Origin: Sipunculus nudus
Taxonomy: Eukaryota > Annelida > Sipuncula > Golfingiida > Sipunculidae
Direction: 5' to 3'
NCBI GenBank assembly: GCA_026874595.1
Contig: CM049317.1
Location: 33,222,901 to 33,286,900, forward strand
DNA length: 64,000 nt
Numbering within the stretch: the stretch's first letter is position 1; every line of letters starts with the position of its first letter. The position numbers were made by a program, and so were the translations under genes. Shown here piece after piece: positions 11,301-55,586 of the stretch. The notes beneath the pieces were generated by a model that made no database searches, had not been told where the DNA came from, and worked only from the letters and a program-made list of their open reading frames with translations.

Positions 11301-14300
11301 AGACAGAGAGGAGAATGGAACAATGCAGATGTAGGAGTGGATGGGTGGCCGGGGTACGTTGACGCCTACGTCTCCCCAATCCCCCCCCCCCCATCCGCCC
11401 CCCCCCCCCCCTTACCCCTCAAGGACGCAATTTCCTTTTGCAATGCGGTGGGGACCATGGTCAAAGACACTTAACTTTTTTTCAGTTAGGTGTGTTGGGA
11501 AAATATTGATACCAATTTATTTCAAATCACTGTAAATATTACATTTACATTTAAATTCAGTTCACACTTCAATGGAAAGTTGCGCTTTTTGCCAATATAA
11601 CAAGGATTTTAGTGATTGGTTTAGTTTAATATCGTCCCCATTCGAAATGAAAATATAAATGATTGGCCTTGTGTTTATTAATGCCCTTGTGACTCAATGA
11701 TTCCTGGAAAAGCTGCACAAAGTGTTAATAAATGAGGTGCTACCCATTATAACTCAGAGCTACAGATGAATTCCCGTGAAGTAATTATAGGGATGGCATC
11801 TTTCATAGGTATAAAGTGAAGACAGCTGAATGCTTTGCATCGTGTGGCAATTCGCCTTGGTGTGCTGAAAATAAGACGAAAGGGGGCCTACTTGTCTTTG
11901 ATATAGAAAATGCACAAGAGAAATAAAGAGAGCGCAAATCCCCGCAAATGACGTTTTTTTTCTTTACCCGGATATTCACATCAAAATTCCTGACTTATCA
12001 CTAAACGGATTACGTTGTCTTACAAGAGGTAGTTCCTATGCAAAAACATATGTTCAATTAGACTATCCAAGCCCGAACAAACTTCACCTTGCTCTCGTAG
12101 CAAAACCAAATAACAGCTCCATGCCCTAACTCCTATAATTCATAACGTACAACGATATATAGTTATGATATCCCTTCAATAGTCTCTGCAAAGTTGAGTC
12201 CATGTCTCAATGAACCAATGACCTTGACAGAAACTGTTTCAGTGCTTGTATATAGTATTCTAGGGTAAGAAAACTTACTGGGGGTTATTGGATGTGGCCA
12301 ACTTGACAACGTGATAACAAGTAACAATTAATGAGTTGAAGACAGAGGAGGATATAATAACAGGCGGGATATACTTTTTGTGTTTAGTCGTTTATTCAAT
12401 CATAAAACCTATTTTGTGATAGATATATGAAACCATAGTATGTATTTTATTATTAATAAATGGTTACTATATATACTCTACAGATGATACAATACTTATA
12501 AAAAAAACCTCTTTATACCTATATATGCTTCTGTCTGAAGACGTGATGATCAAATCATATGAAAAGATGATAAAAAAATAATATTATTTTTACCTTTCAA
12601 AAATATGAAGATTTCTTGCGTACTGATTAAAATGAGAGTAACAAGATCAAATATAAATGTAGAGAAATGAAGCTTTGATTGCTATTACCCAACCGCAGCA
12701 AGTATGTGTAACATGTGTAAACATCAGAGTAGTAAGAGTTGGAGTGCTTTGAATACGTTCTGCGAGCTTGGCGGAGGATGAACGCACAACAGAATAAAAA
12801 CCTTCAGATCTTTGTCCAAATGCAGTATTAGTGTCGAAACTAGTGTTGCTTACCGAAATCGGTTAGAACAAGTATAATGTGTTGTGTCTTTACATTCATA
12901 CTACTTTTTCCATATATTGACCTTCTTTAGACATGCTTTACCTACACCTTTATTCCTAAATTTGCTTAACTTTTTTTCATAACCGTGTGGTGGACAGCGT
13001 AAGGGACCTTAAATGATCCTGAGCAGTTCTTAACTATTGTACAGCCTACTATCAACAACAATAAAATTCGCATACTTACCACTTCAATATAGGTATATTA
13101 ATATCTTATTTAAATGGCAAGTCCTCGAATGATTGCATCACTTCATATGGAATTAGCATATTATTTGACAATAGGTGCGCGAACGAACATTTTCCTTTAC
13201 ACACACCTATTTATACGTACATATATGCATATACATGTATTGTACAAATAGCTATAATAGCTAATGGATGGCTCCCTTAATGGCTCGTTTTGTAGTCTTT
13301 ATGGCCGGGTGAAACCGGAGGCACCGTTGAAAACCGCCGACCTTCTACAGGCAGTTGCATCCCAACCCTCATATCCTTGCAGGGGATCGAACTGGGATCG
13401 CCACCACTCGAGCCAGTAATCATTTGACTGTCCAGACATTACCCATCCGCTTCCAAGCATTTTGCCAGAAAGATTCCCCTCTCATCGGTCTGATTACAAT
13501 ATTTGGCCTTGTTCCAGCTCCTTGCGACGGATACATAGCACGATTGTTGTCGAATAACCACTGCACAATAAAAATAGCAATACTCACTTCCTACTGACAA
13601 CTGATACGTGTTATGTGATTGAATGGGATAAATAATGATGGTTATTTATAACACGTATTTTTCTCTCATTGTTATAATTATCGCTCAGCTATCAGCCCGA
13701 TAATATATATGTACTCTTCCTGGTCATTACTGGCTGTGTAAGTTACATCCTAGCTTGCCAGTCAGTATATGTGCATAACGGAAAAATGTCGGTCGCTTGG
13801 ATTATGCTTGCATTCGTTCTAAGGAAACCAACATCAAACAACGCGGAATTGTGTTCACCCAGAGTGGGAGGTATCTGTTTACAATAAGCATACCCGGGCT
13901 CGTTTTTTTCAGTTTTTCGGTGAATGTTGTGTGCTTACTGAAATTTAAGTGTACATATTTTGTAACTAGGTATAATAATTCATGGGGGGCATAGTGAGTG
14001 TAATTATATAATTATCGTGATCAAATATGGGGTTTCTTTCATAATTTTATTGCACCAAGGCTTTTTATATGATATACATTATATAGTTATCGATGGATGG
14101 CTTCTGTATACTCATATAAAAATATATGGAGACGACGTTGATACTATCGATACTTTTGGACAGCGGTTATCTTCACATAAATGCCAGCTGGAAGGAGGGC
14201 AAGTTATGTAAACATCTTAGGAGGAGAACTATATTGTAACTATCGATGCTCACGACGACTATACTAATTTATACCAGTTTGGACATTTCTTATTTTGTTA

Positions 14301-17300
14301 AAATAAACATACCCTACATAATAAAGACAAAACTCATTTTGTCATTATTAATTCTGTTTTAAGAGCCGGCAACTACGTATTGCCTTCACAAGGCCAATGC
14401 TACCTGGGACTTGGCTGAAATAATGTGCGAGAAGAAAGGCGGAAGTTTAGCCGCTGATAGAGACAGATATACACATGATATTATTGAGGACTTGATCAAG
14501 AAGGGAAATACAAGTCACGCATGGCTCGGTGGAAAAACTATCCCTTCTTTTTGGCAATGGATTCAGCCTCACGGTAAGTACTGAACCCGATGATTAAATA
14601 TCACAAGCTACAAACAATTACATCGTATGAGGTCCATGGAAAGAACATGTAGCATCTTTTCGTTGGCTCGTGTTTGTATTTGTGTAAAAACTGTGAGGAA
14701 ATCCAACAATTATCATACTTGTCAGTTGCAATTTCATGAGTAAAGCATATGACCTATCTATGTTTTCATTATCTCCTTTCAGTATGAAGATCACCCAACA
14801 AGGTCATGCTCACAGCGTTTATCATTTCTTTATTTTTTCAAGGCAGTTGTTATTCTTTTGCATTTTCTGGGAAAGAAAATCGCAACATACACACTTTAAA
14901 GTATATGGCCTCAACAATACAAATATTCTTGTTGTCATTATTTCCCTTCAGGTTCAAGGTCAGCAAGTAAGTTCACGGTTCTGGCTCTTTATCTAATTGT
15001 TATTTTTCAGGATCAATTGTCATGCTGTGGGAGTTACGTGAAAAAAGCTATAAACATACATCATTTTTAACCTTATAGCCATATCAATCTAAAAAAATTA
15101 TGTTGTCTTCATTTCCTCGTAGATTCAAGGTGAACAAGCAAGTCTTTGTCATGGTTTTTATCACATTTCTCACCTTTCTCAGGGTTAGTCGTCATTCTAG
15201 ATGAATTTCATGACGAAAGCTACCAATAAGCATATTGTCATCATTTTTTTTTCAGATTCATGGTAAACGATTGAGGTCAAAGTCATGGTGTTATACAATT
15301 TGTTCACGGTCAGTTGTCAATCATTTTGATTATCATGAAGAAAGCTGGACCTATTCACCCTATTATAGCTGAAAACCATATGCATCTATATAGCAACATG
15401 CAGCTTTTCACTGCAGTGGCAAGGTCCACAATAAAGGTCAATATCTTGGCTTTTAACATTTCTTCTTTTTCTCTGCTATTGAACATTAGTAATACCGAGG
15501 TTTAGCTGTTTATGTTATTATTTATTTTTTGTAGCTTATTCAAATGTATAGATAATTATTAACCAGGAGAGCATTATTTTTCACAAACATATTAATGGAA
15601 ATTAAATAGCAATACAATTTATCATGATGATCATCCTCATTTTCTTCATATATCATCGGAAGCTTCATCGTAGCATCTGAACAAATTTAAACATCCACCT
15701 CACAGGCCATGACATAAACAAAGAGCCATTGGGGAGGAATTTATAGAACAAGCACATTTTTTTAGGAATAGATGACTATCTCTGGTACTGCAAGCAAGTT
15801 CATTTTCTTTGGGACATGACTGTCATACGCAATGTGTCTCAAAGCTATTAAATATGAAAAAAAAGTCAGTCTTAAGGCATTTTATCCATTGGGCATCAAT
15901 CCATGCATTAAATATTGAAAATACTGACCATTGATATGCTATACGGAGGCAGTTCCTCAGCATTCATATTTCTAAAGCCAAAAAAGTTATTTTGGCAGAC
16001 GTGACCTTGATCTTGTCCTCTGACCTTGAATCTACCGAAAAAAAAACAAGAATGTTTTGATTGATGTGGTCATGATATATGTTGCATGCCTCCTTCATAA
16101 AATCAAAATGGAATGACAACTGACCATGAACAATTTAAGAAAGTCTATAATTCTTGATCTATACCTTTTTCTTGACTTTTAAGATCGGATATATCACCAT
16201 TTTTCAGATTGATAAGGCTATAATTTTTACGGTAGTATATGTTTTGCCATTTTTTTTTTGTTATTAAATTCAAATTAAAGACAACTGACACTGTAGAAAA
16301 TCTTTAAATATTAAAGTCATGACTATCACCTTTTGACCTTATATAAACTAATAAAATATGTCAATATGGATTTTAGATGCATTAGGTTATACGCTTGGAA
16401 ATGATGCGTGTTCCAACTTTGTTTTACAAAATTCCCATAGAATGGCAACTGATTCTTGAAATAAAAACTATTAAAAACTCTAGCCTTGACCTTGTTTGCT
16501 GACCTTGAAACTGCAGAGAAAAATAGCTCCATGGATTTTTAGATTGGTCAGGTCAGGGTCCCCGAGAAGAATTTTTTTGAGGCGGTAAAAAAAAGGTTTT
16601 CCGGGCCCCTTCCTAATGCCGTATTGTTATAGCCAGTAAGTTTTACGGATTCAATCATATCTGTATTCGGATTAAACCTAAATCAATCTAGACATTGAAG
16701 GAGTACTGACGAATGAACTGTAAGAGAGGGATGCATTGTTTTTTTTCTATTCAATATTTTGTATATTCTCATAAAGCCTCTTTTCGACCATGATAAACTG
16801 AAAAAACTTATTAAGGGCTTAGCAGTCATCATTACAACCGCAGAGCAAGCATCGCGCAAGCAGTTACCCACAGTAGAGTCTTTGTCTCTCATGTTATATG
16901 TATCGACACAAATTTTCATAATAAGGACAAAATTAATTGAAACTTTGAAGAACAAATGAATACCGGAACGTCAAAAGCGGTTTAAATAGTACGACAGATC
17001 ACCAAGTACCGACGCAGCCAAGCGATCTGCTAGTGCAGGTTCGTCAGATTGTAACATATTTGGCATATAAGCCCCTCCATACGGTTACAACCTAAGGTGA
17101 CAGGTGTAAGATCGAGAGTTGAAGCAGCATCGTTGATTCTGATTCGATGAAAATTTATATTATTTTTTTATATACAATATGCACGGTTTACAAAAATCAG
17201 CTTTACATCATTGTCCAACTAATAGAACCAAGCAAAGTTTGTGATAAAGCGTTTAGAATTAATAAAACTATATTTTCTTGTATCAGCTTAACTATCTGAC

Positions 17301-20300
17301 ATTTGGCAAATCATATGCTTCCATACCTTGGTTGACAGGCATTCAAAAGCTATATGAATTTATGAAAAGTTGACAATTGATATTATATATAGCATGTATA
17401 TACATGGAGACTGTATATATAAACCTAATGAAAGCACCCCCCCCCCCACACACACACATAAAGCGCCTGGATCGATATTAAAAATAAAATAAATAAATAA
17501 AAATGGCCTTTTCCAAAAATATGATATTCATGCATGCAAGAGATAACACTTAAAAAGGAGTAAAAGAATATATCTAAATTAATATAAAAAACATGATATT
17601 CTACCGAAAAAAAAACTCTACGCCTCCAGCCGCCTTAGAATGAAAGCAAGTAAATAATAATGTTAGTTAATTCTTCCACGGATGTGCGTTAAACGAAATA
17701 TCAGCCCGAAATATTTGCCTGGATACACCGTAACCAGCGTCTGCTATGTCTCCAGAATTTCTTAATACACTCTAAGAATCGGCTCTAAGAACTCATGGCC
17801 ATCCCGGCCCTTTTGATTGAATCTAAAGCTTTTTAAGACAGATGAGACTTCTTTGTCAATCTTTTTTATATGCATTTGTAAACTCCTGAACCAAAGCCCT
17901 AACAGACCATTCCGGTCACTTCCGATTAAAATTCCATAGAGTAACGCCAAATAGAAAACAATGTTCCGAATTAACAAGCATCTAATTGGGCCTTATAGGA
18001 GACTCCAAGTCTGAGCCTGGTCCCTCTGAACCCCACTTCTGAAAGTTTTAAATAGGCAAGTTAACATACAAGCAAAAATAGATTTCCTTATTCACCAGTA
18101 TTGCCTTGTGATATATATATATATATATATATAGGAAACTCCTGACGGGACCGGGCACCTTTAGCCCCTTTGGATCACTCTTAATTGGAAACTTTTATAT
18201 TTACTCTTCACAAAGGACATGACTTCCGCATTTTCGAGCATTTTCATTTTGCTTATTGATCACTCCTAAGCTGAAATAAATTTTCCAGGAGGCATCTACT
18301 TTCAAACATTTTAGTTGCCCCGATAGCAAATTCCTGCCTGGTCAGGACACCTTTCGATCCCTCGGGTCAATCTAGGTCACAAACTCATGATTCTCAAATG
18401 ACTAAAGAAGCTTCTGCATTTTGGAGCGTTACTTCTTCCTTACCTAATAATCTGGGATTGGGTCAGGTCATAAGCTGTAAAATGATGTATCTTGCCATCT
18501 TTCTTTACGAAAATCTTACTGGAGTTTATAATCTGAAAACTGAGCCTGGGCAATACAAATCATGCCCTTTATTACGTCACTAAGTTGTTTTATATGATGT
18601 GTTTACATTGCTACAATTATATAGTATTATTAAACACAATTATTGTCCCATATTCTTGCAGTAGCATTCCATACTTCGAGGATATTTTACCAAGGATGCT
18701 ACACCTGGAACAAAACCAACTCACGGGATGAACCTCGGTATACCATCACAAACTGTAAAATAACAACAAGCTTCCTCCAATGTAAAAAGCACTGCATCGG
18801 TTTCAAATACATCATGCTTAACAAGGTACTTCGCTGTTAAGAGATAACTGAAAGTAAAAAAAAATATTAATGGGAATTTATCCAGAGCTGTGAAATGAAA
18901 TAAATTGTAGGCATGTACACTAAAATATGTGTAACTTCATTGTGTTTTATTATTTTTGTAACATATCAAGGCCGTTATTTCACGCACATAACCGAATTTG
19001 CTGAGTAATGCTAGTATAATACCAAGATAGAAATATTTTATCCATGCATTTCATGGGTTTTGTATTTTCGCAAACAAGGTATCAACTGACAGTGTCCAAT
19101 GCTGCTGTGGTCGCACATTTGGAGAACAAGGACCATCTAATGCATGTTTTAAATGTTTGGACCAGAAGAGTAGAATATGTGGCGGCCGTGTAAGCCATGC
19201 TGTATATGTCGTAAAACCAGGATATGGTAAATCTATCCGTTTAGTACAACTATTACACGAAATGTACTGTTAGACAATAATGTCATGAATATTAAATATT
19301 TAGATTTTGTCTTATATTTTTAAATCATACAATGGTCCAAACGTTTCAGTCATACTTTTCTTCCTTTAAGGTTAAAGTCCATCAATTTTAATAAAGGACC
19401 TTTCTTCTTTATGGCCCGAAAGAAAAGATCTCTTTGGAATCGAAAAATATATGCACGGACATATTTTTTCATAATTTTTTTTAAAACTATAACAGTTGTC
19501 TTTTTAATTATTCTGTTGTCATTGTGTTATGTGTTTGTTTATCTTAGGCCTGGAATTGAGTATAGCAGTTTAGACATACATACAATATTTCACACATAGT
19601 TCAACGAGAAAAAAAAGCATATACTTAAATATCTGTAAAAAAGATGGCCTTCGAGGGTTCAGATAACTCTTGCTTTGTAGAGAGAAATTTATGGGAGAGT
19701 GGCCACCCTAAGGGAATAAAAGATCATGATGGTAATGCCAGATGTGCTTCACTTGTGTTCAACAAGAATGTAGCAGAAATACGAAGCATGCCATGTTCCA
19801 GAAAGTTCCTTCCTTTATGTGTTTCGATGAAAGGTTTTCAATTTTTTCAGTACTTCATTTGATCATTTAATGTTCTTTTAGATAAAGAAAATCTTACAGT
19901 ACGTATTTTGAATACCAGGCAGGGGCAGTTTCCGTTAACATATTCTTTGTCAATACATGTTTATAATAATGACATGTTTACATTCGTTTGGCAGTATTTT
20001 GACGTTAGTGTTACATGCAAAAGATTTATTTCAATGAGCACATATATTTATAACTTTCCATTCTGTATACGTTTAAAACCATGCAATTTACGCCATCGCA
20101 TTACAATTTATTTACAACATATTTCAACAAGTGACCCATGGGTCATGACGCAAAGCCGACTGACATGTATATGTCCTTGCACAGACAACTAATTAAGATA
20201 AAGGGCATCATTGTTAATGCATATTAGCTTAAGTTCATCAAGACCCGTAAAAAACAAATTTGATTACAATCCAACCAGCCTTTCATGAGGGAACTGGCAA

Positions 20301-22721
20301 TTTGTGTGTATTTTGCATTATTTTTGGGTGCCCTAACATACCCCAAAACTCTGAGAATATAGGTTACTGTGACCAAGTTTCATGTTTCTCGGGAGAACTT
20401 TTGAGGAACTCTCAGGATGTCAAGTTAGAAGATTCCGGGCCCCATGGTTATGCTTTGTGCCATATTTTTGTATAACATTTTCAATTATTCCGAGGGGTGT
20501 AACATATTGTAATATTGGTAACCGAGACCTTAATTAACGTTTCCCAGGAGACTTTCCACATCTCGCCCTGGATGTCAAGTTTTAAGATTCTCGGACCAAT
20601 GGTTACAATTTGAGCCCTGTAAAGGGACGACCGCATCTTTGAAGGTCTCATAAATAGAGAAAAAAATGTGTTATTTTTTTTTAATTTAGGCAGTGCCACC
20701 AGTCCTCAAGAACTGATGAAACATTCCATAATGAATATGCATGCAAAGAATCAGGGTGAACTTTCATTGGCCTCTCAACATATAAAAAAAGAAGATACTA
20801 GGTCTAGTAGTTACGATTTGTATCCTGTTAACAGATGACCGCATCTTTGAAGGTCTCAAAAATAGATAAACAAAAACACAGGTGGTGCCACATGTCTGCA
20901 AAAACTGATGTAACACCCCATGATCAATATCCATACAAAGAATCATGGTGATCATAAATGCATTAGTTGTTCAGATACATGAGCTTTTGTATCAAATTTT
21001 CCATTATACTGTGGGGTACTTCTGAGCCCCATAGCTTGAAGAATTTGGGTAACAGTGACCTAATTCCAGGTTTCCAAGAAGACCTTTTCTGGACCTCTCT
21101 GGATGTCAAGTGAAAAGATTTCAGGTCTAGCGGTTACGATTTGTGCCCTGTTAACAGATGACGGCATCTTTTGAGGTCTCAAAAATAGAGAAAAAATCGG
21201 AAAAAAATGAAAATTACAGGTGGTGCCACCAGTCGGCAGAAACTGATGGAACACTCCATGATCAATATCCCTGCAAAGAATCATGGTGGTCAATGCATTA
21301 GTTGTTCAGATATTTGAGCTTTTTTCTGACATTTTTCATTATTCTGGGGGGGGGGGGGGGGTACTTTGGAGCCCCATAGCTTGAAGAATATGGGAAACAG
21401 AGACCTAATTCCAGGTTTCCTAGGAAATTTTTGTATGGACCTCTTTGGATTTAAAGTTAGTAGATTCCAGTTCCAATGGTTACGATTCGTGCCTTGTTAA
21501 TGGACAGACGGCCGGATTGCCGGACGGACGACGGACAAAGAGATATCGCTATAGCTCAGATGACTTACAGTCAGCTGAGCAAAAAAGCATGTGTTGTCCA
21601 CAGATCCAAAATCAGTCATCAGTCAACCTTTTGGCGAAGTTGAAGGGTGCCCATGGGATCTGAACAAAACAGATACATGGGAAGAGGCCATAAATCACTG
21701 CAGCTACAATCACGCACGTTTGGTAACGTTCCTAAACAGAGATGATTACAAACAAGTTACAAAATGCAGGAGTAACATTCTGGGCAAGGCGCAATACAAG
21801 GAATTCTGGGTTTATGGTACCAGCAGCATCTGGCAGTGGCAAAACAGTGGGTATTTTATTAAATTATTCGCATCTTTCATAGACTGCACTTACATTCAAC
21901 TTAAAATGCGAATACTCTAATACCCTTTCATTACACAGTATTTTTAATGAAAATTGATAATGTAATCATCCTCGAAAATAATGCACTATTTTGTTATTTA
22001 TATTCACATTGTAGTCATGAATCGACAGATACCGGCCAACCATTGGTTAAAAGTGTACCAACCGCCGATCCCGAATCGATGCCTTTTCATGAGCTATACG
22101 GGTGAATGGTCATCAATTCCATGCTCAAGTACGATGAATGGATTTATTTGTGCTCACAGTAAGATTTTATTTCAAAATTCCAAAAATTTATTCTGCATTA
22201 ATTGTAAGTTACGGAAAAAAGTGAAATGTAAGGTTACATTTACATAAAGGAGTGTGTCTATTCACATGTTATTTTATTAATTGGGTATATAAGATATTCT
22301 GCGGTCATTAGTTTTGATTGCAACGGACTGTACAGTTGTTTGAAACACACATCTGAATAGGATGATAGGTTATATTTGATAACTGTTATTAAATGATAGT
22401 TTCAAGTCTGCAGTACTGTTTCAAATCACTACGTAAATATACACGTGACGATAAAGGTGAATGCCATTTATGTTTGCTTGTCAATATACCGTGCCCACAA
22501 CTAAAGCTGGACTAGGCAAAGGCACGGTTTATGGAATATCGGGCACATTACATTCAGTCTCTTCATCAACATCCACGTTTGAAAGCACCAAATCAGATAG
22601 GTGCAAAATTACTTTTTTTTAATATACCCAAATATACCTTTAAAAATGTACCAACTTTTCCCAATAAATCCAAACTTACGGCGTATTTCAGCCAGAAGCA
22701 AACAAACATACACACAGATTT

Positions 22722-22784
<63 letters not shown>

Positions 22785-24850
22785 CAGAAAGGGTTTGATT
22801 GCCATTCCATGATCAAAGTGCTCGATACATAAAGTAGAGCTGCTATAAGTTCATAAAAATGCACCAATGCATTAATGTCACTACCCGCAGGTTTCGTGCG
22901 CACTGTGTGGCACTCATCAGGTGACTGAAATGGGTTGGTTTGTGTTTGTTCATGTATGGGTGCGTGTGCGAGATTATTTACGGTTGGCTGGTTTTTGCTG
23001 CATGATGCCTGTAAGTGTTAAGGTATTCACTTCGTTCTTTTGTATGTCATGATTTGTAGCTTTTCTTGTTCGCATAGGTTACACTTGTTATTCATTGTTG
23101 TTGTAGTTGGCTTAGCTATAATTAGCCATGTGATACTGTGTGAGGTGCCTTGGCGTTTCGGTTTCATAATATACGTTGATAGTTCTGTTTCTGTTTCATA
23201 CTTCTCGTATTTAAACGACTTCTTGTGGTTCGCATAGCGGCTTTTAAAAGTATTTCCTGTGTTTCCTATGTATGAGACGGTCCCGTTATTCTGTTTATTC
23301 TGTGTATTCTGTTAATACTGGTCAAATGCATGAATGCACAATGAAACAAATCCGTTTCAATACATCAATGAGGAATATCCCTATTACAAGCCGCACATCA
23401 TACCGGAGACATTTATTGGGGAAAGTCGAAAGCGTCTTAAACGCATGCGTTGGAAAGTCATATTTTCCAAAAAAGACGAGAACCTGGACAGCGATAGGGA
23501 ACCAACAGAAAACCGCACTTGCAAATACGGATTGAAGTCTAAAAGAATCCCACCAAAACTTGATGAAACCAAAGCATTTGAAGATGATATATTTAAGATC
23601 GTTGAAAACTTAGAATTCCGGAAAGTAACTGACACGTTTCAAGAAAGTCTGACCATAGATGTAAAATTTATAACTTCATCAAAGGAACTCATCGTTCCGG
23701 CGGACAAAACCAGGAATTTTTACAAACTAAACCATGAAGAATACAACAAATTACTCACAGAAAACATCACCGCCAAATACAAACCAGCCAAAGATAACAC
23801 CCAGCATAAAATTAACAAGGAAATGCACAAGATCGCCGCTCAGTACGATTTGGATGACCGGACCAACCCGATGAAACCCCAAAACGCGTTCATCACGTTA
23901 AAAGACCACAAAACGAACTTTTCAAACAAACCAACATGCAGGTTAATCAATCCGGCAAAGACAGAACTGGGCAAAGTCAGCAAATCAATTATGGATAGAA
24001 TAAATACAAGCATCAGGAATTCCACCAACCTCAACCAATGGCGCAACACTGCAGAAGCAATCGATTGGTTTTCTTCAATAAAAGACAAAAAAAGATCAAA
24101 GTTTCTACTTTTCGACATAGCCGAATTTTATCCTTCCATATCTGAGGATCTCCTAATAAAAAGTGTGACCCGGTCTAAAAAATATCTGAACGCGAACTGA
24201 ATACAATCCTACACTGCAGAAAATTGCTATTGTTCCATAAAAACAAGTCCTGGGAAAAAAGAAACAACTCGTCATTTGACGTCACAATGGGCAGTTTTGA
24301 CGGGGCAGAAATCTGCGAGAACGTAGGACTGTTCATACTTCACACGCTCAGTAAAATAATCCCCTCAGAAAACATAGGACTGTACCGGGATGACGGATTA
24401 GCCGTACTCAAAGGAATGACGGGACGAGCATCAGACAAACTCAGAACAAAAATAACTTCAGAACTCCAGCTTCTTGGCATCAAGAGTCCAACCTAAACAC
24501 AGTTAATTTCCTTGACGTGACTTTCCATATGAAGAACAACTCATATAAGCCGTACAGGAAACCAAATGACAACCCTTTATATGTGCATAAATCGTCCAAC
24601 CATCCACCTCAAATCATCAAGCAAATTCCAGAAGCGATCGGCAAACGTATATCACAGCTCTCCCACGACGAAGAATCATTCCATTCCACCGCCCACATCT
24701 ATAACGACGCGCTAGAAAACTCAGGACACAACGAAAGAATTAGCTACAGCAAACCCAAACCAACCCCTTTCAGTCACTTGATGAGTGCCACGCAGTGCGC
24801 ACGAAACCTGCGGGTAGTGACATTAATGCATTGATGCATTTTTATGAACT

Positions 24851-30600: not shown

Positions 30601-33600
30601 ATGTTAGATAAAGGACCCAATCCCAACACACTGTTCAAACGACAGCATATCATAGTGATGCTCAATGAGTAACGCGATAAAAATTCGCTATAGCCTGGTC
30701 TGTTTTTTTTCTACTCTGGCCCATCTATATTCATGAGCAAGCTGAATATTACATGGGCTGGGAACAAAAACAAAAAACGCTTACCGCCATAGCACTTGCC
30801 ATAATAATGGCATTACAGGACCTGAAGCGCACTCGGTAACCTTCATTGAATGCCGCCCTAGTCTAACAACACAATACTCTGCCCGGCGCGTCGATTCTCG
30901 CTTAAAAATATACAGGTCAAACAGACCCGAACAAGTAAACCCGACAAATGAAAATAAACCCTGATTAAACAAAATGATACGATTCATCTTGTGACATCTG
31001 CTGCATTTCAAAAGTAACATACTATTATATGCAATATTATAATTATTATCACTGATCCACTAAAAAGGAAACAGTACATGATTACCTAAGAATGTATTTT
31101 GTTAAAGGTACGAAGCTGAATACTGAAGAAGATACGGCTACAAAAACAAGGCGTGTAACGGTCACGCCTGCATCAGTTTCTGCTGGACCTGCCGAGAAGA
31201 GTACCAAGTCCAGTAAATATTCTCTTCAGGGTGTTCCTAAAATATTAAATATATATACAAATTCAATTAAAGCCACAGCTTTAGGGTGGTCAACTAACAT
31301 GATAACTTTCCAAATAGTTAAATTAACATACCACCTTTCCGTGTCTGGTTTATTATATCATAATCTTGCCGACCGATCTGCTGCATTCCAGAAGTTATTG
31401 GCACTGTTATATACAATACATTGTTATTACTAAAATAAACCATCCATGTTCCCCTTGTACTACGAATGTCTTTTGTTGAAGGTTTGGCGCCGACAACTGA
31501 GAAAGATATTGTTACAAGAACGAAGCGCATACATGTGACTTCTACCTCGGTTTCTACTGGACCTGCCGTTAAGAGTGGAAATTTAAGTAAGTGATCTCTG
31601 CAGGATGTTCCTATTATTTTTCCTATATACAAATATGTGGCGCTTAATTTTAAAGTATAACCTTGGCGACCTTCGTTGAGATAGCTGTTATATTATTTTC
31701 CATGTATTGTATGGTATATTTGATATATTGTTTCAATACTGTTTTTTTTATCAGTATCCTTGTAATGTACAATAAATACACGACATAGACAAGGAGTAAA
31801 AAATACTTATCGATTTCATTATCCTGGATATATTTGTACATACACATAACTCGATCGTACATCGTGTCTTTGTAATAATTTAAGTAAGCTTTTTATCTGT
31901 GAATCGTTCAATGCTTGTTGCTTACCCTCTCTTTTCTTACATATTTTGAAGCTATGTTTTCAATATGGTAATAAAGTTTCAGTGGCTTCGATGTTAGATA
32001 AAGGACCCAATCCCAACACACTGTTCAAACGACAGCATATATTATTAGTGATGCTCAATGAGTAACGCGATAAAAAATCCCCATAGCCACAAAGAGCAAA
32101 TCAAAGATTCATGATGAAAAATAGATCCAGCTTGTATAGCTCGTATATATGTCAGTTTGATTACCATTCATGTGATTGTCATGTTCCCTGCATGACCCAA
32201 CATGATCTGAAGAAAATATGTGGGCAGTACACAATAATTTAGACAGCTTTCACTTGTTAAGAATTCAGATTATATTGTCAGAAACACGGATGTGATGATG
32301 AATGTAAACGTTGCACTCAGAAACCAGCTCAATTTCAAAGGAACGGCAATTTGGAAAGGGTATATGGGCGACGGGTATACAAAGGGGCAATTTAGAATAT
32401 TTACCTGCTTTAGAAAAAAAAATTCATATTTTTTTATGGAAGTGTTTAATAACCAGATGAACTTCACATGTGTCACAAATTTCCAAATACCGAGACTTAT
32501 TTTGACTTCTTTGTACATGAACACGTTATGTTTACAACAATCTCCTCAAACAGGGCACTTCGCATATACAGATTTCATCTCTGTTCATTCTTTTATGGTG
32601 AAAATAACATTGTCCTTATGGTCATACATTTCAACCAATTTTATTCTGATTCGAAAGGACCTCATGGAATATTAATTTGAATATTTTTTTTTATGTGTAT
32701 GCATGTCTTGCATCACCCGTTGAATTTTCAGACATTTTTAACGCTCAGAAATATATTTAGCATTCCTGCAGAGATTCTTTTTCATTGACGCATTCCATTA
32801 TTATTTTATATAGTTTTTGTTATATGTTGTAATTCGTGAGTTGTTTTAAACACTACATGAATTTATTTGTTTCCCTGCGTTCTCCATCATCGGTTAGAGA
32901 TGATCCAAATAACCATTGGCATCGTTGCGTGTCTTATCCTGGTCAGCGTCGGATTGGCCTTGATTGTTGTAGGAAAAAGGTAAAGTCCATGGGCGAGTAG
33001 GGAATAGCTCCACCCCCCCCCCCCCCCCCGCCCCGGGCTATTTTTCTAAGCCCTAATTTTCTTATACCCAGAGGTCCCTAGTTTGTGAAAATTAATGCTG
33101 GCACTTGAATCGAGGCTAATTTTTTTAATGGCCCTTTTTATCTAACCACGTCAAAGTGCCAAGTTTGCGACTGACGGAAATCGTGTTAACGGGGTATGGT
33201 TACAACACAGACTGCAACTTCCTTAATATTAGCCCTAGGATGGGCCTTTCATTGCTTAACAAGATAGATATAACTGTGTTTGTATTTGGATGTGTAAACT
33301 GCTATATTAATTGCTTATTAATTTGCTTGGATTAATTGCATAATCTGAGTTTTTTATTGTTTCACGTGGTGTATTTTTTTAATGAAAAGTAATGTTGTAG
33401 CAGAAACAAAATTATATTTTGGAGCAATGGCCTGTATCAGACCGCGTCAAAGTGTCCAGTTCGTTGCCGGAAGAAGCTATAATTTTCTTAATTCTTGTCT
33501 TAGGATCAAGGAATGTGTACCATTTTATTACCTTTTATTCGTGCTAATAAGGACATATTTATATAAGTATGATATTTTCTATTTGAAACACAGTTCATAA

Positions 33601-36600: not shown

Positions 36601-38698
36601 CTTAAAAGATGCGGTTATATGTTAACAGGGCACAAAATGTTACCACTGGACCTAAAATCTTCTATCATGAAATTCAAGGAGGCCCATCAAAAGTCTCCTT
36701 GGAAACCTGGAATAAGGTCTCTGTTTCCCATAACGTCTGAGCTATAGGGCTTTGAAGTACCCCCGAGAACAACTCGAAATTTGATACAAAAGCACTTGTA
36801 TCTCAACAAAAAGTTCATCGATTACCATGATTTTTTGCATGCATATTCATCATGGAGTGTTTCGTCAGTTCCTGCTGACTGGTGGCGCCACCTGGATTTT
36901 TTTTTCATTTTTTTATGCATTTTCTCTCTATTTTTGAGACCTTTAAAGATACAATCGTCTGTTAACAGGGCAGGGAGGTCAATGAATAATATCTTTGGAA
37001 ACCTGGAATCAGGTCTCTGTTACCCATATTCTTCAAGCTATGGGGCTCTGAGGTATCCCCCTCCCCCAGTATAATGGAAAATTTGATACAAAAGCTAAAG
37101 TATCTGAACAACTAATACATTGATCACCGTGATTCTTTGCAAGGATATTGGTTATGGAGTGTTTCATCAGTTTTCTGTAGTCTGATGGCCCCACCAGGGC
37201 AGGGAGGTCAATGAAAAATATCCTTGGAAACCTAAAATTAGGTCTCTGTTACCCATATTCTCTGAGCTAAGGGGCTTATAAGCACCCTAGCATAATTGAA
37301 TATTTGATACCAATGCGGGGCACAAATTATAGCCATTTGACCTAGAATCTTCTAACTTAAAATCCAAGGAGGTCCATGAAAAGTTTCATTTGAAACATGA
37401 AATTAGGTCTCTATTACCAATATTCTATGAGCAATGGGGCTTATAAGCTCGCCCCAGAATATTTGAACATTTGGTACCAAAGTAGCGCACAAATCATAAC
37501 CATTGGACCCAGAATCTTTTCACTTGGCATCCTAAGAGTTCCTCTAAAGTTCTCCCATCAAAACCTGAAATTTGGTCACTGTGACCCTTTATTCTCAGAG
37601 TTTTGGCTTATGTTTGAGCATCCCAGAAGTAATGAAAAAATACACACAAATTGCCAGGTTCCTCAGGAAAGGCTGGTTGGATTGTCATCAAATTTGGTGT
37701 GCTAATGGATCTTGATAAACTTAAGCTAATAAGCTTGAATGATGATGCCACCTATATTATCTTTATTAATTTCCTGTGCAAGGACATATTATCAACATGT
37801 CAGTCGGCTGAGCGTCATGACCCATGGGTCACTTGTTATCAACTCAAATACTTAGTAAACCGTAACATAAGTATTCCGTCATATTATTAAAATATATACA
37901 CAAAATATTGACAATGTGATTTACACAACTGTAATAACATCCTGTATAAGCAGTTGACACTTTTACCTGTTGATGTAATAAATATATTATGCATGAAGGA
38001 TGTGTTTTTATAAAGGTAATATTACTTTTATCATAAGACAGAATTAGTATGTATGTTATTTGTTTACCTTAATTTTTTTCAGAAAACAGAAACGCTTTTA
38101 TGGTCTGCAAGAAAGCTCCCATGAATTACCAAATGTGGGTATGAGACCTGAAACTGAGGACAATACCTACCAAGAACCACTCAACTTCCAAGTACATAAT
38201 TTGGATGTAACAAATATTACCGTTGGCGATGACATACACACTGAAATGGTGGAAAATGAAATATACGAATCTGGTCCCCAGGTACAAATTATAGGTTCTA
38301 ATGAAGTGCATAACACGTGCCATCAGCTGCAGGATATGCAAGGGAGACTACAAAGTGCGGCAAATAAATACCATAACTCGCACCAAGACAATAAGACTGC
38401 TGATCTATATGTGCCAAATAATGCACTTGACAAGGACGTGGACTCTGAAATGGTCGAAAATGAAATATACGAATCTGGTCCCCAGATACAAATTAAATGT
38501 TCTAATGAAGTGCATGACACTTGCCATGAGCTGCCAGATATAAAAGAAAGGCTACTGACTGAGGAAAATAAATACCATTGCTCACACAAGACTGCTGATC
38601 GATATGTGCCAAATAATGCACTTGACAAAGACATAGATACTGAAATGGTGGAAAATGAAATATATGAATCAGCAACTGGTCCCTGGGCACATAATTAA
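8287..38698 (+). CDS. Gene A: CTLD/WSC/CTLD type I transmembrane receptor (15 exons)
   Basis: Predicted single-pass surface receptor, probably binding glycans or proteins of microbes or self through lectin-like modules. Coding exons: 8287-8355, 14366-14573, 18662-18825, 19079-19226, 19663-19833, 21604-21846, 22015-22158, 25581-25685, 26432-26518, 29709-29813, 30095-30199, 31108-31212, 31482-31586, 32898-32979 and 38083-38698. All have GT-AG borders, phases match at every join, and the total is 2457 nt (818 residues plus stop). Order: signal peptide, CTLD N-half, WSC, CTLD C-half, second CTLD, six stalk repeats, membrane helix, tyrosine-rich tail. The signal exon is 6 kb upstream; its link to exon 2 is the least secure join. 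Additional or alternative exons cannot be excluded. Name withheld because no orthologue is recognised. Confidence 0.8.
8356..14365 (+). other. Gene A intron 1, with repeats and a GC-rich island
   Basis: A GC-richer island lies at 9040-9350 with overlapping frames on both strands that match nothing known. A poly-C tract is at 11383-11412. A tRNA-SINE-like fragment lies at 13290-13440. Other frames here (10447, 11292, 13797, 14017) show no domain and are taken as chance. Confidence 0.5.
13290..13440 (-). repeat. SINE-like fragment with B box
   Basis: On the minus strand CAGTTCGATCC (13394-13384) resembles a polymerase III B box, preceded by TGGCTCGAGTGGTGG, an A-box-like stretch placed too close for an intact tRNA head. 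It is probably a rearranged tRNA-derived SINE, followed by a GGTTTCACCCGGCCAT tail. Confidence 0.4.
14366..14573 (+). CDS. Gene A exon 2: N-terminal half of CTLD 1
   Basis: About 69 codons carry the first half of a C-type lectin fold: YCLHKANATWDLAEIMC (the Cys, Trp-x-x-Ala and helix 1 signature), GGSLAADRD (strand after helix 1), AWLGGKT (the WIGL position) and FWQW before the long loop. The exon ends after Pro-His in phase 1 at a strong GTAAGTA donor. It lacks the extra N-terminal Cys pair of long-form CTLDs. The matching C-half is not found in the next 4 kb but in exon 5, after the WSC exons. Confidence 0.85.
14574..18661 (+). other. Gene A intron 2
   Basis: It was searched for a CTLD C-half (Trp...Pro...Cys-Ala/Val...Cys....Leu-Cys) and none was seen. 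About 14700-15350 holds degenerate tandem units of roughly 150 bp (each with a CATGA.GAAAGCTA-like block and TTTTTCAGATTCAAGGT). 15940-16560 has scattered TGACCTTG/CAAGGTCA motifs. Poly-C lies near 17437 and a short (TA)n at 18112-18134. A poorly resolved repeat at 18140-18580 may be TE-derived. Confidence 0.5.
18662..19226 (+). CDS. Gene A exons 3-4: WSC domain
   Basis: Exons 18662-18825 and 19079-19226 are separated by a 253-bp phase-0 intron. Together they encode a WSC (cell-wall integrity and stress response component-like) domain of about 90 residues. Signature blocks in order: FYQGCYTW, TNCKITT, CKKHC, QCCCGRTFG (the ECYCG position), CFKC, and RICGGRVSHAVYVV at the end. WSC domains are Cys-rich putative carbohydrate-binding modules. 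The pair enters and leaves in phase 1, so it is a symmetric module that can be inserted without breaking a phase-1 host intron. That host intron lies between the two halves of CTLD 1. The donor after exon 3 (GTACTT) is weak. Confidence 0.85.
19663..19833 (+). CDS. Gene A exon 5: C-terminal half of CTLD 1
   Basis: About 57 codons: LWESGHPKG (the W..(E/Q)P(N/D) loop, here GHPK), ARCASLVF (the Cys-Val-x-Leu strand), SMPCSRKFLPLCV (the last two Cys). The WND motif is absent (EIRSMPC instead), so canonical calcium-dependent sugar binding is unlikely. The start at 19663 was chosen because the TTCAG acceptor gives phase 1; acceptors at 19644 and 19656 give the wrong phase. No N-half precedes it between the WSC exons and here, so its partner must be exon 2. 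Confidence 0.75.
20115..21581 (-). repeat. Dispersed element with ~290-bp internal repeats, copy 2
   Basis: This is an inverted copy in gene A intron 5. Its terminal hairpin end (AGCTCAG ... CTGAGC, 21553-21580) abuts exon 6. Inside are four or more diverged monomers with the reverse complement of the GGGAGGTCCATG, AGGTCTCTGTTACCC and GAGCTATGGGGCTC blocks, a poly-G tract near 21345, and at the far end a match to ACATGTCAGTCGGC. Minus-strand frames at 20481, 20764 and 21060 are products of the repeat. Confidence 0.8.
21604..22158 (+). CDS. Gene A exons 6-7: CTLD 2
   Basis: Exon 6 (21604-21846) carries GCPWDLNKTDTWEEAINHC, ARLVTF, FWVYG and IWQWQN, the N-half of a CTLD. Exon 7 (22015-22158) carries NHWLKVYQPPIPNRCLF, GEWSSIPCS and GFICAHS, the C-half. 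The EPN/QPD position reads QPP and the WND position reads WSS, so the calcium and sugar ligands are not conserved; the fold more likely binds protein or a non-canonical ligand. Exon 6 is closed at 21846 (donor GTGGGT) because this gives phase 1; a GTATTT donor 4 bases on would be out of phase. Exon 7 ends at a strong GTAAGA. Confidence 0.85.
22724..22783. repeat. (TA)n microsatellite flanking the PLE, left
   Basis: About 30 TA units directly left of the Penelope-like element. A second run lies on its right side. Confidence 0.95.
22877..22925 (-). ncRNA. Hammerhead ribozyme motif, core intact (left copy)
   Basis: On the minus strand: stem I GUCAC, core CUGAUGA, stem II GUGC...GCAC with an extended CAC/GUG helix, GAAA, a two-base-pair stem III (CC/GG, loop UGCG), cleavage triplet GUA, then stem I partner GUGAC. 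All conserved core bases are present. The very short stem III is typical of the minimal type I hammerheads of Penelope-like elements, which act best as dimers. Confidence 0.8.
23027..23290 (-). pseudogene. PLE GIY-YIG endonuclease C-terminal fragment
   Basis: An uninterrupted minus-strand frame of about 87 codons ends at TGA (23029-23027). Blocks: SYIGNTGNTFKSRYANHKKS (the YIG strand and the Arg helix of GIY-YIG nucleases), then TELSTYI and SITWLII, then a CNLCEQEK Cys pair near the end. The N-terminal GIY strand is cut off at the junction with the plus-strand RT segment near 23290. This inverted 5'-truncated copy shares its terminal repeat and ribozyme with the RT copy. Confidence 0.8.
23334..24760 (+). 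pseudogene. PLE reverse transcriptase, two frameshifts
   Basis: Three successive frames read through one RT. 23334-24199 carries the fingers and first palm parts (IVPADKTRNFYKL, FITLKDHKTNF, CRLINPAKTELGK, and FDIAEFYPSIS with the first catalytic Asp). 24224-24496 carries VTMGSFDGAEICE and GLYRDDGLAV with the catalytic Asp pair. 24517-24760 carries FHMKNNSYKPYRKPND and SNHPPQIIKQIP (thumb region). Frameshifts fall near 24190-24220 and 24480-24500. The C-terminal connection to GIY-YIG is missing. The catalytic residues are intact, so decay is recent to moderate. Confidence 0.85.
24773..24821 (+). ncRNA. Hammerhead ribozyme motif, core mutated (right copy)
   Basis: Same layout as the left copy on the opposite strand: GUCAC, then UUGAUGA instead of CUGAUGA, stem II GUGC...GCAC, GAAA, short stem III, GUA, GUGAC. 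The first core base (C3 in standard numbering) is U, a change expected to abolish or strongly lower self-cleavage. Confidence 0.75.
24854..24897. repeat. (TA)n microsatellite flanking the PLE, right
   Basis: About 22 TA units joined directly to the right terminal repeat of the element. Confidence 0.95.
25581..25685 (+). CDS. Gene A stalk exon 1
   Basis: The exon is 105 bp, phase 1 to phase 1, between TTAAAG and GTATGT. It encodes about 35 residues: MALTTEENTAIRTK, AVASTIVPH, then a basic end DEKSVKP. It is Ser/Thr-rich with alternating charge, as in an O-glycosylated extended stalk. It is the most diverged of six homologous exons; all start after an AAAG-like acceptor and share TEE/TEK..T...T. 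No enzymatic domain is recognised. Confidence 0.75.
25686..26431 (+). other. Intron with (CT)n(TA)n compound microsatellite
   Basis: A CT run (about 25931-25970) is followed by a TA run (about 25971-26011). Both flanks show the diverged stalk-region repeat, for instance CAACTNRTGGTCAACTAAGATGATA-like sequence near 26250 shared with 25390, 28470, 29887 and 31288. Confidence 0.6.
25931..26011. repeat. (CT)n(TA)n compound microsatellite
   Basis: About 20 CT units followed directly by about 20 TA units, in the intron between stalk exons 1 and 2. Confidence 0.95.
26432..26518 (+). CDS. Gene A stalk exon 2 (short form)
   Basis: The exon is 87 bp, phase 1 to phase 1: MALSTEEETAVRTKRAQVTS, TSVPAGPH, then donor GTAAGT. 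It is homologous to the other stalk exons but ends six residues earlier, because a donor formed where the others read through into a basic Lys-rich end. Confidence 0.75.
26519..29708 (+). other. Gene A intron 9, with ghost stalk unit and local duplications
   Basis: (TA)n lies at about 27584-27623. 28000-28640 repeats the flanks of stalk exons (shared ATTCAAGGTGTATCAGTTA and GGTGGTCAACTAACATGA blocks), but the exon expected near 28630 is not recognisable, so a stalk unit has decayed. About 28850-29060 and 29097-29310 are a diverged tandem pair (CTCTCTGGACAC, CACTGAGT, AAATACCC and GGAGGCTCATTTAT blocks). Confidence 0.6.
29709..29813 (+). CDS. Gene A stalk exon 3 (type A, unit 1)
   Basis: The exon is 105 bp, phase 1 to phase 1: TKLNTEEDTATKTRRVTVT, PASVSAGPAEKRTKS. 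It is Thr-rich with basic clusters. It differs from stalk exon 5 by a single codon (AGA, Arg, against AGT, Ser), which dates the duplication as recent. Confidence 0.8.
30095..30199 (+). CDS. Gene A stalk exon 4 (type B, unit 1)
   Basis: The exon is 105 bp, phase 1 to phase 1, with strong donor GTAAGT: LAPTTEKDTVTRTKRIHETS, TSVSTGPGVKSGIS. It pairs with stalk exon 6, from which it differs at several replacement sites. It lies 281 bp after stalk exon 3. Confidence 0.8.
31108..31212 (+). CDS. Gene A stalk exon 5 (type A, unit 2)
   Basis: The exon is 105 bp, phase 1 to phase 1, near-identical to stalk exon 3, with EKSTKS in place of EKRTKS at its end. Reading frame, acceptor (GTTAAAG) and donor (GTAAAT) are preserved, so the duplicate can be spliced in without frame change. 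Confidence 0.8.
31482..31586 (+). CDS. Gene A stalk exon 6 (type B, unit 2)
   Basis: The exon is 105 bp, phase 1 to phase 1: LAPTTEKDIVTRTKRIHVTS, TSVSTGPAVKSGNL, donor GTAAGT. It is the last stalk exon before the membrane exon. Compared with exon 4 it has T/I, E/V, G/A, I/N and S/L changes. Confidence 0.8.
31587..32897 (+). other. Gene A intron 13
   Basis: The first part is the end of duplication unit 2. After 32082 the DNA is unique. The plus-strand frame at 32292-32675 (127 codons) has no recognisable domain, unsuitable splice borders and ordinary AT-rich composition, so it is not called as a gene. Confidence 0.5.
32898..32979 (+). CDS. Gene A exon 14: transmembrane helix
   Basis: The exon is 82 bp, entering in phase 1 and leaving in phase 2. 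It encodes MIQITIGIVACLILVSVGLA then LIVVGKR: about 22 hydrophobic residues followed by a basic stop-transfer cluster that continues as KQKRF in the next exon. This fixes a type I orientation, with lectin modules outside and tyrosine tail inside. The donor is GTAAAG. The phase-2 exit matches only the 38083 acceptor among plausible downstream exons. Confidence 0.85.
34520..35108. repeat. Possible inverted-repeat element in intron 14
   Basis: ACTATAGTCCGTCCCAGTAC at about 34524 and GTACTGAGACGGACTATAG at about 35089 are near-perfect reverse complements, extended by CCGTGTCCGCATGTTTTT and AAAAACATGCGGACACGG. This gives terminal inverted repeats of about 40 bp around roughly 590 bp, a size typical of a MITE. 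No coding frame lies inside. Confidence 0.6.
35195..37850 (+). repeat. Dispersed element with ~290-bp internal repeats, copy 3 (double)
   Basis: Two heads with the hairpin AGCTCAG...CTGAGCT and a 'gtccgtcgtccg' stretch lie at 35203-35231 and 36379-36407, followed by at least eight monomers. Each monomer has GGGAGGTCCATG, GGTCTCTGTTACCCATA, GAGCTATGGGGCTC, a C run, AATTTGATACAAAAGCT, GCATTGATCACCATGATT, TTTCATCAGTTTCTGCAGAC and GGTGGCGCCACCTG blocks. The end ACATGTCAGTCGGCTGAGCG is shared with copies 1 and 2. Overlapping short frames are repeat products. Confidence 0.85.
38083..38698 (+). CDS. Gene A exon 15: cytoplasmic tail with tyrosine repeats
   Basis: About 205 codons to TAA at 38696-38698. 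After the basic KQKRFYGLQ juxtamembrane run come 2.3 tandem repeats of 65-68 residues. Each starts EMVENEIYESGP and contains SNEVH(N/D)TCH, NKYH and LYVPNNALDK or RYVPNNALDK; the third stops after NEIYES. Tyrosine contexts: YESG three times, YVPN twice, YQEP once, YGLQ once. These are candidate phosphorylation and SH2 docking sites, but none is a canonical ITAM or ITIM. DNA repeat offsets are 204 and 195 bp, in frame, so repeat number can change without a frameshift. Minus-strand frames here are shadows. Confidence 0.85.
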
Positions 38699-54954: not shown

Positions 54955-55586
54955 CTAAATAACCTTCGATTCACATATGAAATAACCATGATTATAGATC
55001 TTCCAGTCATTCCAAGCGCCGCCAGGTTCGATGACCATGTGATCTTCCAAATTCATATAGTTGTCTGGTTGTCTACTGTCCCAGTGACTGTAGTTAAATT
55101 CTTCGCCGGTTGCTTCCCAGACCAAGAATCCTTCAGTCTTAGAGTCTGAACCTGATGTCCAGTAGGCAACGTTAGCTACAACAAAAAGAGTAACCTTGAC
55201 CATACTCGGTTACTGTACATTGCCACGTATGTCTAATTCCAGTACCAGTGAACACTTGTAATATTAAACCAATATGAGTATCAATCATGGAACATTTTTG
55301 TGAAAAAAATATCAGTCTAAAACCGTACACTGACATTATTTTGTAGATTTTTCTTGATATATTCACCTACCTGCGTTATGTTTTTGCAGCAGGCTTCTCA
55401 AGTGTTTATCTTCAGATCCAGACTCGATGCTAACGAGGTCACCTTTAACTGCGTTGCAGGTAACGCGGGCGGTTATCCAATCCGCTTTTGTCAAGTAAAT
55501 GAAATAACAGGACGGAATCCAACTTCCATCCTGTAATCTACTTCCGCAGGGAAAGCCATCACTGAACTTTGACGGGCAACTGATAA
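54955..55586 (-). CDS. Gene B exons 3-4: CTLD with QPD and WND
   Basis: Exon 3 (55586-55371) holds CPSKFSDGFPCGS, WIPSCYF, KADWITARVTC and GDLVSIESGSEDKHL, a standard CTLD first half. Exon 4 (55175-54955) holds VAYWTSGSDSKTEGFLVWEA, HWDSRQPDNYMN, LEDHMVIEPGGAWNDWKIYN and GYFICES, then stop. QPD plus WND marks the calcium site 2 of galactose-type CTLDs. In place of the usual EDCVV there is EDHMV, and the Cys normally a few residues after WND is missing (WNDWKIYNHGYFIC). Thus both partners of the inner disulfide are gone, while the outer Cys pair remains. Confidence 0.85.

What the first reader, a model, noticed from the sequence alone, without database searches (positions are those of the whole stretch)
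14366..19833. A WSC domain nested between the two halves of one C-type lectin domain
Exon 2 encodes only the first half of a CTLD and exon 5 only the second half. The two exons between them encode a complete WSC domain. Neither a second half after exon 2 (4 kb searched) nor a first half before exon 5 (0.43 kb searched) was seen. All three borders are phase 1 and the WSC pair is symmetric 1-1, so it could have been shuffled into the CTLD's own intron without frame damage. The insertion point follows the FWQW strand, just before the long-loop region that forms the ligand site. A sugar-binding-type module inserted in the binding loop of another would be an unusual composite receptor head. I do not know of a described example.
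Basis: partly seen in the sequence, partly recalled or inferred. Interest (0 to 1): 0.88.

Follow-up and report, generated by a model that had tools for sequence, protein, structure and literature searches.

The report
Lectin receptors with a nested domain
In this animal genome (probably a bivalve), a family of predicted cell-surface receptor genes has one recognition module (WSC) placed inside another (a C-type lectin domain), and the arrangement recurs in related genes rather than being a one-off.

Summary
[quoted passage not shown] border phases 1-0-1; exon 5 more likely starts at 19681. It is not an accident of one locus: all four exons occur in this order at 14 of 27 loci whose downstream sequence I held, three of the 14 with a lesion in these exons. 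Of 52 matches of a family WSC, 50 lie within 6 kb 3' of a first half, same strand, none 5'. The halves and the WSC share one history (Mantel r 0.67-0.81). I also found the rest of the gene: signal-peptide-like start, a second CTLD without insert, transmembrane segment, tyrosine-repeat tail; nine exons give an open frame of 614 codons. CTLD2 is split at the same place and phase, so WSC was probably shuffled into an existing intron. Not shown: RNA or fold. Skipping both WSC exons keeps the frame, so an optional cassette is not excluded. CTLD plus WSC in bivalve proteins is in print; the passages I read do not mention nesting. New variant of a known kind.

The parts
13786..13870 (+). exon 1: start codon and signal-peptide-like segment, donor phase 1 (weakest exon of the model)
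   Evidence: frame and donor; tblastn match in 1 of 4 paralogues searched, L040, E 4e-4; no signal-peptide predictor run
14364..14573 (+). exon 2: first half of CTLD1 (through W-x-W)
   Evidence: Pfam Lectin_C 3-59/107; paralogues
18662..18825 (+). exon 3: WSC part a
   Evidence: Pfam WSC with exon 4, below cut-off; paralogues; acceptor phase 1, donor phase 0
19079..19226 (+). exon 4: WSC part b
   Evidence: as exon 3; acceptor phase 0, donor phase 1
19681..19833 (+). exon 5: second half of CTLD1 (alternative in-frame phase-1 acceptor gives 19663)
   Evidence: completes Lectin_C with exon 2; start chosen by comparison with L039-L042
21604..21846 (+). exon 6: first half of CTLD2 (start uncertain, several candidate acceptors)
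   Evidence: Pfam Lectin_C over joined exons 6-7; paralogues; sites
22015..22158 (+). exon 7: second half of CTLD2; the intron before it has the same site and phase as the WSC-bearing one, without WSC
32898..32979 (+). exon 8: transmembrane segment
   Evidence: hydrophobic stretch conserved in the L039, L040 and L041 genes; splice phases 1 and 2
38083..38698 (+). exon 9: cytoplasmic tail with three VENEIYES motifs, stop codon
   Evidence: its other genome matches at E<=0.01 lie 3' of the L040, L041 and L039 genes, same strand

Best explanation
The window holds a nine-exon gene for a type I membrane receptor: signal peptide, CTLD1 interrupted by a WSC domain, CTLD2, one transmembrane segment, tyrosine-repeat tail. 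It belongs to a multigene family in this genome with the same nested head. Most likely a symmetric two-exon WSC unit (phase 1 outside, 0 inside) was inserted once, in an ancestor of the family, into a phase-1 intron already present in CTLD1, and was inherited through duplication. In the protein the C1-C4 disulfide of CTLD1 would close the lectin fold around the insert, and the WSC would stand out from the long-loop face, where other CTLDs bind ligands. WSC has a PAN/apple fold with its first and last strands adjacent, which suits a plug-in domain. I think the head is an immune or mucosal recognition module in which WSC supplies much of the contact surface and the tail signals or drives uptake. 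Shown: gene order, phases, conservation, constraint on the coding sequence, conserved TM and tail exons. Inferred: the spliced product, the single insertion, the fold, the function. The confidence given is that a product with WSC between the two halves is made; it overlaps with the first rival.
For: All four exons in order at 14 loci: window, L039-L042, L050, five genes of the 25.3-26.8 Mb region (second halves similar to each other), L053, L055, L064. 50 of 52 WSC matches lie <6 kb 3' of a first half on the same strand (two of the 52 are the query's own locus), 0 on the 5' side, 0 opposite; random positions reach 195 of 2000 inside the 25.30-25.96 Mb cluster and 8 of 2000 on C12. A splice site of the expected phase (1-0-1) at every border scored: 13 of 13 loci for first-half donor, WSC a acceptor and donor, 12 of 12 for WSC b, 11 of 11 for the second-half acceptor; other candidate sites exist at many borders. 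First half + second half raises Lectin_C by 7.6-11.6 bits in 4 of 4 genes tested. Distances correlate: first half-WSC r 0.74 (17 loci), WSC-second half 0.81 and half-half 0.67 (12 loci). dN/dS below 0.5 in 15 of 15 pairs for WSC a and 10 of 13 for WSC b (hand-picked, overlapping pairs, dS saturated or near zero in several). In L039 and L040 a signal-peptide-like start lies in one open frame with the first half. TM and tail conserved in three paralogues. Open frame of 614 codons. WSC fold: PMC9024836 and PMC5014086, passages.
Against: No RNA evidence. Skipping both WSC exons leaves an open frame and a good Lectin_C match. L041 has a stop in WSC a and L042 a frame break in WSC b while the other exons I checked are open, as a dispensable cassette could look; but L040 has a stop in the CTLD1 second half and L039 a frame break in CTLD2. 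WSC matches stay below Pfam's cut-off: 20.9 bits (window), 17.4 (L039), no WSC match in the three others tried, L022, L018, L064; none of the 17 matches of the WSC model in the genome is at the window or the 14 loci. Divergent members therefore rest on my own profiles, a cysteine pattern and reading by eye. Of 27 loci with downstream sequence, 4 had WSC but no second half in the stretch (L027/L045, L037/L049, L059, L063) and 9 had no WSC in it. Two of 52 WSC matches have no first half within 6 kb 5'. No structure prediction of the spliced protein.
Confidence: 0.8

Rival explanations
1. Optional cassette: the WSC exon pair is alternatively spliced, so some transcripts encode a plain CTLD1 and others the nested head. 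This overlaps with the best explanation, since the nested product is also made.
For: The pair is symmetric 1-1 and skipping both keeps the frame. Direct joining gives a good CTLD. L041 and L042 carry lesions in WSC only, among the exons checked.
Against: WSC exons are conserved as coding sequence and co-inherited with the halves; but these facts do not distinguish always from sometimes included.
Confidence: 0.3
2. Disused exons: the WSC lies in a CTLD intron by rearrangement and is never used; the functional product is CTLD1 (exons 2+5) plus CTLD2.
For: Two of the five closest genes carry a lesion in WSC (L041, L042).
Against: Order, splice sites and phases recur at many loci; dN/dS mostly below 0.5 in WSC exons; cysteines conserved in 17 of 17 aligned loci.
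Confidence: 0.06
3. Two domains side by side: the WSC belongs between complete CTLDs, and the missing halves were overlooked or lost.
For: A different gene in this genome (L007, C8) appears to have WSC followed by the start of a CTLD.
Against: One first half precedes and one second half follows the WSC before CTLD2 begins, in the window and in four cluster genes (L022, L016, L018, L028); in L039 and L040 the first half follows a signal-peptide-like start directly; none in introns 2 and 4 by profile.
Confidence: 0.04

Closest known systems
Bivalve-specific CTLD-containing proteins with extra domains including WSC (PMC10140915; abstract and passages)
   Same: CTLD and WSC in predicted bivalve proteins; large lineage-specific expansion; authors suggest immune roles
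   Different: In those passages WSC is named as a companion domain; the words insert, nested and split have 0 occurrences in the main text; figures and supplements were not seen
Polycystin-1 (WSC and CTLD in one receptor; recalled)
   Same: WSC and CTLD in one membrane protein
   Different: There the two domains follow one another (recalled); here one interrupts the other
Kremen1 (PMC5014086, passages)
   Same: Type I receptor with a WSC domain and a cytoplasmic tail
   Different: Kringle-WSC-CUB in series, no CTLD, four WSC disulfides; ten WSC cysteines here
Multi-CTLD type I receptors of the mannose-receptor kind (recalled)
   Same: Tandem CTLDs, transmembrane segment, tail
   Different: No inserted domain (recalled); in the first 427 residues scanned here Pfam found only Lectin_C, WSC and a weak DUF5075

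Membership tests
C-type lectin-like domain (Pfam Lectin_C) | Complete domain by profile | tested here: met
   Exons 2+5 joined: 3-106 of 107, 38.6 bits against a cut-off of 22.6; CTLD2 also above cut-off
C-type lectin-like domain (Pfam Lectin_C) | Core cysteines C1-C4 and C2-C3 | tested here: met
   C1 in 16 of 17 first halves; C2, C3, C4 in 11, 11 and 12 of 12 second halves; the pairing is recalled
Calcium-dependent sugar-binding C-type lectin | EPN/QPD and WND signatures | tested here: not met
   Window exon 5 reads GHPKG and EIRSMPC at those places; read by eye, motifs recalled; EPN is present in the uninterrupted CTLD L061
WSC domain | Full-length profile match at the curated cut-off | tested here: not met
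   Full length 1-82 but 20.9 bits against 27.8
WSC domain | Eight conserved cysteines with CxC and CG patterns | tested here: met
   Equivalent cysteines plus two extra in 17 aligned loci; one loop cysteine aligns in two columns, 9 and 7 of 17; reference pattern from PMC9024836 and PMC5014086, passages
Type I transmembrane receptor | Signal peptide, single TM, cytoplasmic tail | tested here: inconclusive
   TM and tail conserved in three paralogues; signal peptide judged by eye, no predictor run
Domain insertion (A1-B-A2) architecture | One domain's sequence interrupts another's | tested here: met
   At gene level at 14 loci; at protein level not testable with these tools

The most novel reading that the evidence does not exclude
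An old intron-mediated insertion of WSC into a CTLD founded a large, fast-evolving family of tyrosine-tailed receptors in which the lectin fold has lost its calcium site and serves as a scaffold that presents the inserted WSC as the recognition surface.
Probability: 0.4. Interest if true: 0.78.

Novelty: new variant of a known kind. Interest (0 to 1): 0.62.

Why it matters
It is a clean natural case of exon shuffling into the middle of a domain, with what looks like the empty site kept in the second CTLD of the same gene, and repeated in many paralogues that can be compared. If translated as read, it shows that the start of the CTLD long loop accepts a whole folded domain, which bears on how invertebrate recognition receptors diversify and on engineering of the lectin fold. 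It also suggests that profile-based lectin inventories can miss the nesting, since the WSC falls below the Pfam cut-off and only the first half of the CTLD is found alone.

Tried and rejected
Rejected: a missing second half in intron 2 or first half in intron 4 (none at E<0.3 by profile); random proximity of WSC and CTLD exons; WSC exons of a separate gene in the intron (their splice sites are in phase with the CTLD halves). My first exon 5 start (19663) was replaced by 19681 after comparison with paralogues.

Led nowhere or limited: Rfam and tRNA scans of the window found nothing. No PDB chain convincingly resembles the family WSC (three chance-like matches, best E 0.35). The source of the inserted WSC was not found; eight other WSC loci were inspected but their splice phases were not settled. 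Of 22 automatic loci not used as profile seeds, 19 had WSC a or b downstream on the same strand at E<0.5 (one off-strand chance match, in L032); several of the 22 are near-identical copies. L019, L020 and L033 did not, but L020 and L019 have WSC further downstream, and L033 shows weak fragments with the iterated profile. Of 14 further first-half loci, 3 had all four exons, 2 the first half and part of the WSC, 9 no WSC in the 2.7-3.1 kb fetched; of these 9, L054 and L056 have a WSC match just beyond (E 8e-4 and 0.26) and L061 and L062 are ordinary uninterrupted CTLDs. The distance correlations used 17 loci picked by me; near-identical copies and loci with broken or missing exons (among them L042, L055, L059, L063) were left out. 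Outside those 17, L059 lacks the extra cysteine in WSC a and L042 reads CCSC in WSC b. Second halves evolve fastest, dN/dS up to 1.40 between L039 and L040. Literature; 'WSC domain' with 'CTLD' gave 0 papers; the library lacks most subscription journals, so absence from print is not shown. PMC13114784 (domain insertions, passages) has 0 occurrences of lectin or WSC in its main text. PMC4581086 (passages) lists a WSC domain-containing protein 2 among gill transcripts of a mussel, without architecture.
Full report
What was checked. The window is a 64 kb stretch of contig C12 of a 1.43 Gb animal genome. [quoted passage not shown] Exons 3 and 4 (18662-18825 and 19079-19226) together match WSC 1-82 of 82 with E 4.4e-4 and 20.9 bits, under the curated cut-off of 27.8. 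Exon 5 alone matches no family, but joined directly to exon 2 it completes Lectin_C (3-106 of 107), raising 27.1 to 37.7 bits. The outer borders are phase 1 and the intron inside the WSC is phase 0.

It is a family. A search of the genome with the nested sequence gave 144 matches, 117 of which I sorted by hand as first-half matches. Matches are scored exon by exon, so first-half loci were not chosen for having a WSC. With profiles built from the window and four paralogues, 19 of 22 other automatic loci had WSC a or b downstream on the same strand at E<0.5. I then held downstream sequence for 27 loci. All four exons, in the order first half, WSC a, WSC b, second half, were found at 14: the window, L039, L040, L041, L042 and L050; five genes of the 25.3-26.8 Mb region (L022, L017, L016, L018, L028), where the second half was found by a cysteine pattern and by eye and is similar among them; and L053, L055 and L064, with weaker matches. 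Four loci had WSC but no second half in the stretch held (L027/L045, L037/L049, L059, L063), and nine had no WSC in it. Several members carry lesions: stops in L040 (second half) and L041 (WSC a), a frame break in L042 (WSC b).

Association in the other direction. A WSC pair from one cluster gene used as query gave 52 matches, two of them its own locus. Of these, 50 lie within 6 kb 3' of a first-half match on the same strand; none lies 5' of one or opposite to one; two have none within reach. Random positions in the cluster reach 195 of 2000, and on all of C12 8 of 2000.

Splice phases. A site of phase 1 for the first-half donor and WSC a acceptor and of phase 0 for the WSC a donor was found in 13 of 13 loci; phase 0 for the WSC b acceptor and phase 1 for its donor in 12 of 12 (in two of these the phase-1 donor is the second candidate); phase 1 for the second-half acceptor in 11 of 11. 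Other candidate sites exist at many borders. Comparison of the window with L039-L042 shows a phase-1 site just before the conserved xxxW segment; this moves the window exon 5 start to 19681, drops an odd cysteine, and gives 38.6 bits for the joined domain.

Shared history and constraint. Pairwise distances of first halves and WSC correlate at r 0.74 (17 loci), of WSC and second halves at 0.81 and of the two halves at 0.67 (12 loci), permutation p 0.0002 or less; the loci were those with readable exons, near-identical copies left out. dN/dS is below 0.5 in 15 of 15 pairs for WSC a and 10 of 13 for WSC b; second halves evolve fastest, up to 1.40. In the 17 aligned loci the WSC has the canonical cysteines plus one more in each part: four in part a and CCC in part b in 17 of 17. 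Outside these 17, L059 lacks the extra one in part a and L042 reads CCSC in part b. A fifth disulfide is my inference.

The whole gene. A frame at 38048-38698 looked like a cytoplasmic tail with repeated VENEIYES motifs. Its other matches in the genome at E<=0.01 lie 3' of the L040, L041 and L039 genes on the same strand. Between CTLD2 and the tail a transmembrane exon is conserved in the same four genes; in the window it is 32898-32979. A signal-peptide-like exon 1 at 13786-13870 resembles the start of L040 (one of four paralogues searched), where it lies in one open frame with the first half; L039 also starts in one frame with its first half. The nine exons give 614 codons without a stop. 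CTLD1 is thus most likely the first domain, with no upstream CTLD to pair with its halves.

Origin. CTLD2 of the same gene is split by an intron at the same place and phase, without WSC, whereas two ordinary CTLDs on C17 and C14 run through this point uninterrupted. The simplest account is that the family's CTLDs already had a phase-1 intron there and that a symmetric WSC unit entered it in CTLD1. WSC has a PAN/apple fold with strand order beta1-beta5-beta3-beta4-beta2 (PMC5014086, PMC9024836; passages), so its first and last strands are neighbours; that the termini are close is my inference from this order.

Function. The insert sits after the W-x-W strand, at the start of the long loop, as the alignment to E-selectin shows. 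The window CTLD1 lacks the calcium signatures (recalled motifs, read). I therefore favour a recognition head in which the WSC contributes much of the contact surface, on a signalling or endocytic receptor. Members with lesions (also L039, a frame break in CTLD2) point to rapid birth and death of genes.

What is not shown. There is no RNA. Skipping both WSC exons keeps the frame, skipping one does not. Lesions confined to WSC in L041 and L042, among the exons checked, favour an optional cassette somewhat; conservation of WSC as coding sequence speaks against disuse. The Pfam WSC model rings weakly (window, L039) or not at all (L022, L018, L064) on the family, and none of its 17 genome matches is at these loci, so the assignment of divergent members rests on my profiles and the cysteine pattern.

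Literature. A 2023 survey of bivalve C-type lectins reports bivalve-specific multi-domain CTLD proteins and names WSC among the companions (PMC10140915, abstract and passages). It used Pfam scans, and the words insert, nested and split have 0 occurrences in its main text; figures and supplements were not seen. No paper in the library holds both 'WSC domain' and 'CTLD'. I conclude: known combination, topology not described in anything I saw, hence a new variant of a known kind.

Noticed in passing
window 38083-38698 (+): Cytoplasmic-tail exon with three VENEIYES motifs and other tyrosines (YQEP, YVPN); matches at E<=0.01 only at three nested paralogues. Which adaptor it might bind is unknown.
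   Followed up: partly
window 23334-24834 (+), 23027-23311 (-): Frames that look to me like pieces of a Penelope-type retroelement inside the gene's intron 7; Pfam gave no reverse transcriptase match for the longest frame, so this rests on recall.
   Followed up: partly
L007 (C8:16323838-16326966): A different gene with a WSC exon followed by the start of a CTLD, i.e. in series, perhaps polycystin-1-like (recalled).
   Followed up: no
window 55372-55506 (-) and 63808-63942 (-): Two other CTLD first-half-like stretches on the minus strand.
   Followed up: no
C12:25.3-26.0 Mb and 26.8 Mb: Dense cluster of nested family genes on both strands, some nearly identical (L024, L025, L026), so probably recent duplication.
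   Followed up: partly
L039 (C12:33112184-33112243 and 33112661-33112720): First half of CTLD2 is tandemly duplicated, and both copies seem to have the same frame break.
   Followed up: no
L053 (C12:33522800-33525650): CTLD1 appears to have lost C1 in the first half and C2 and C3 in the second half.
   Followed up: no
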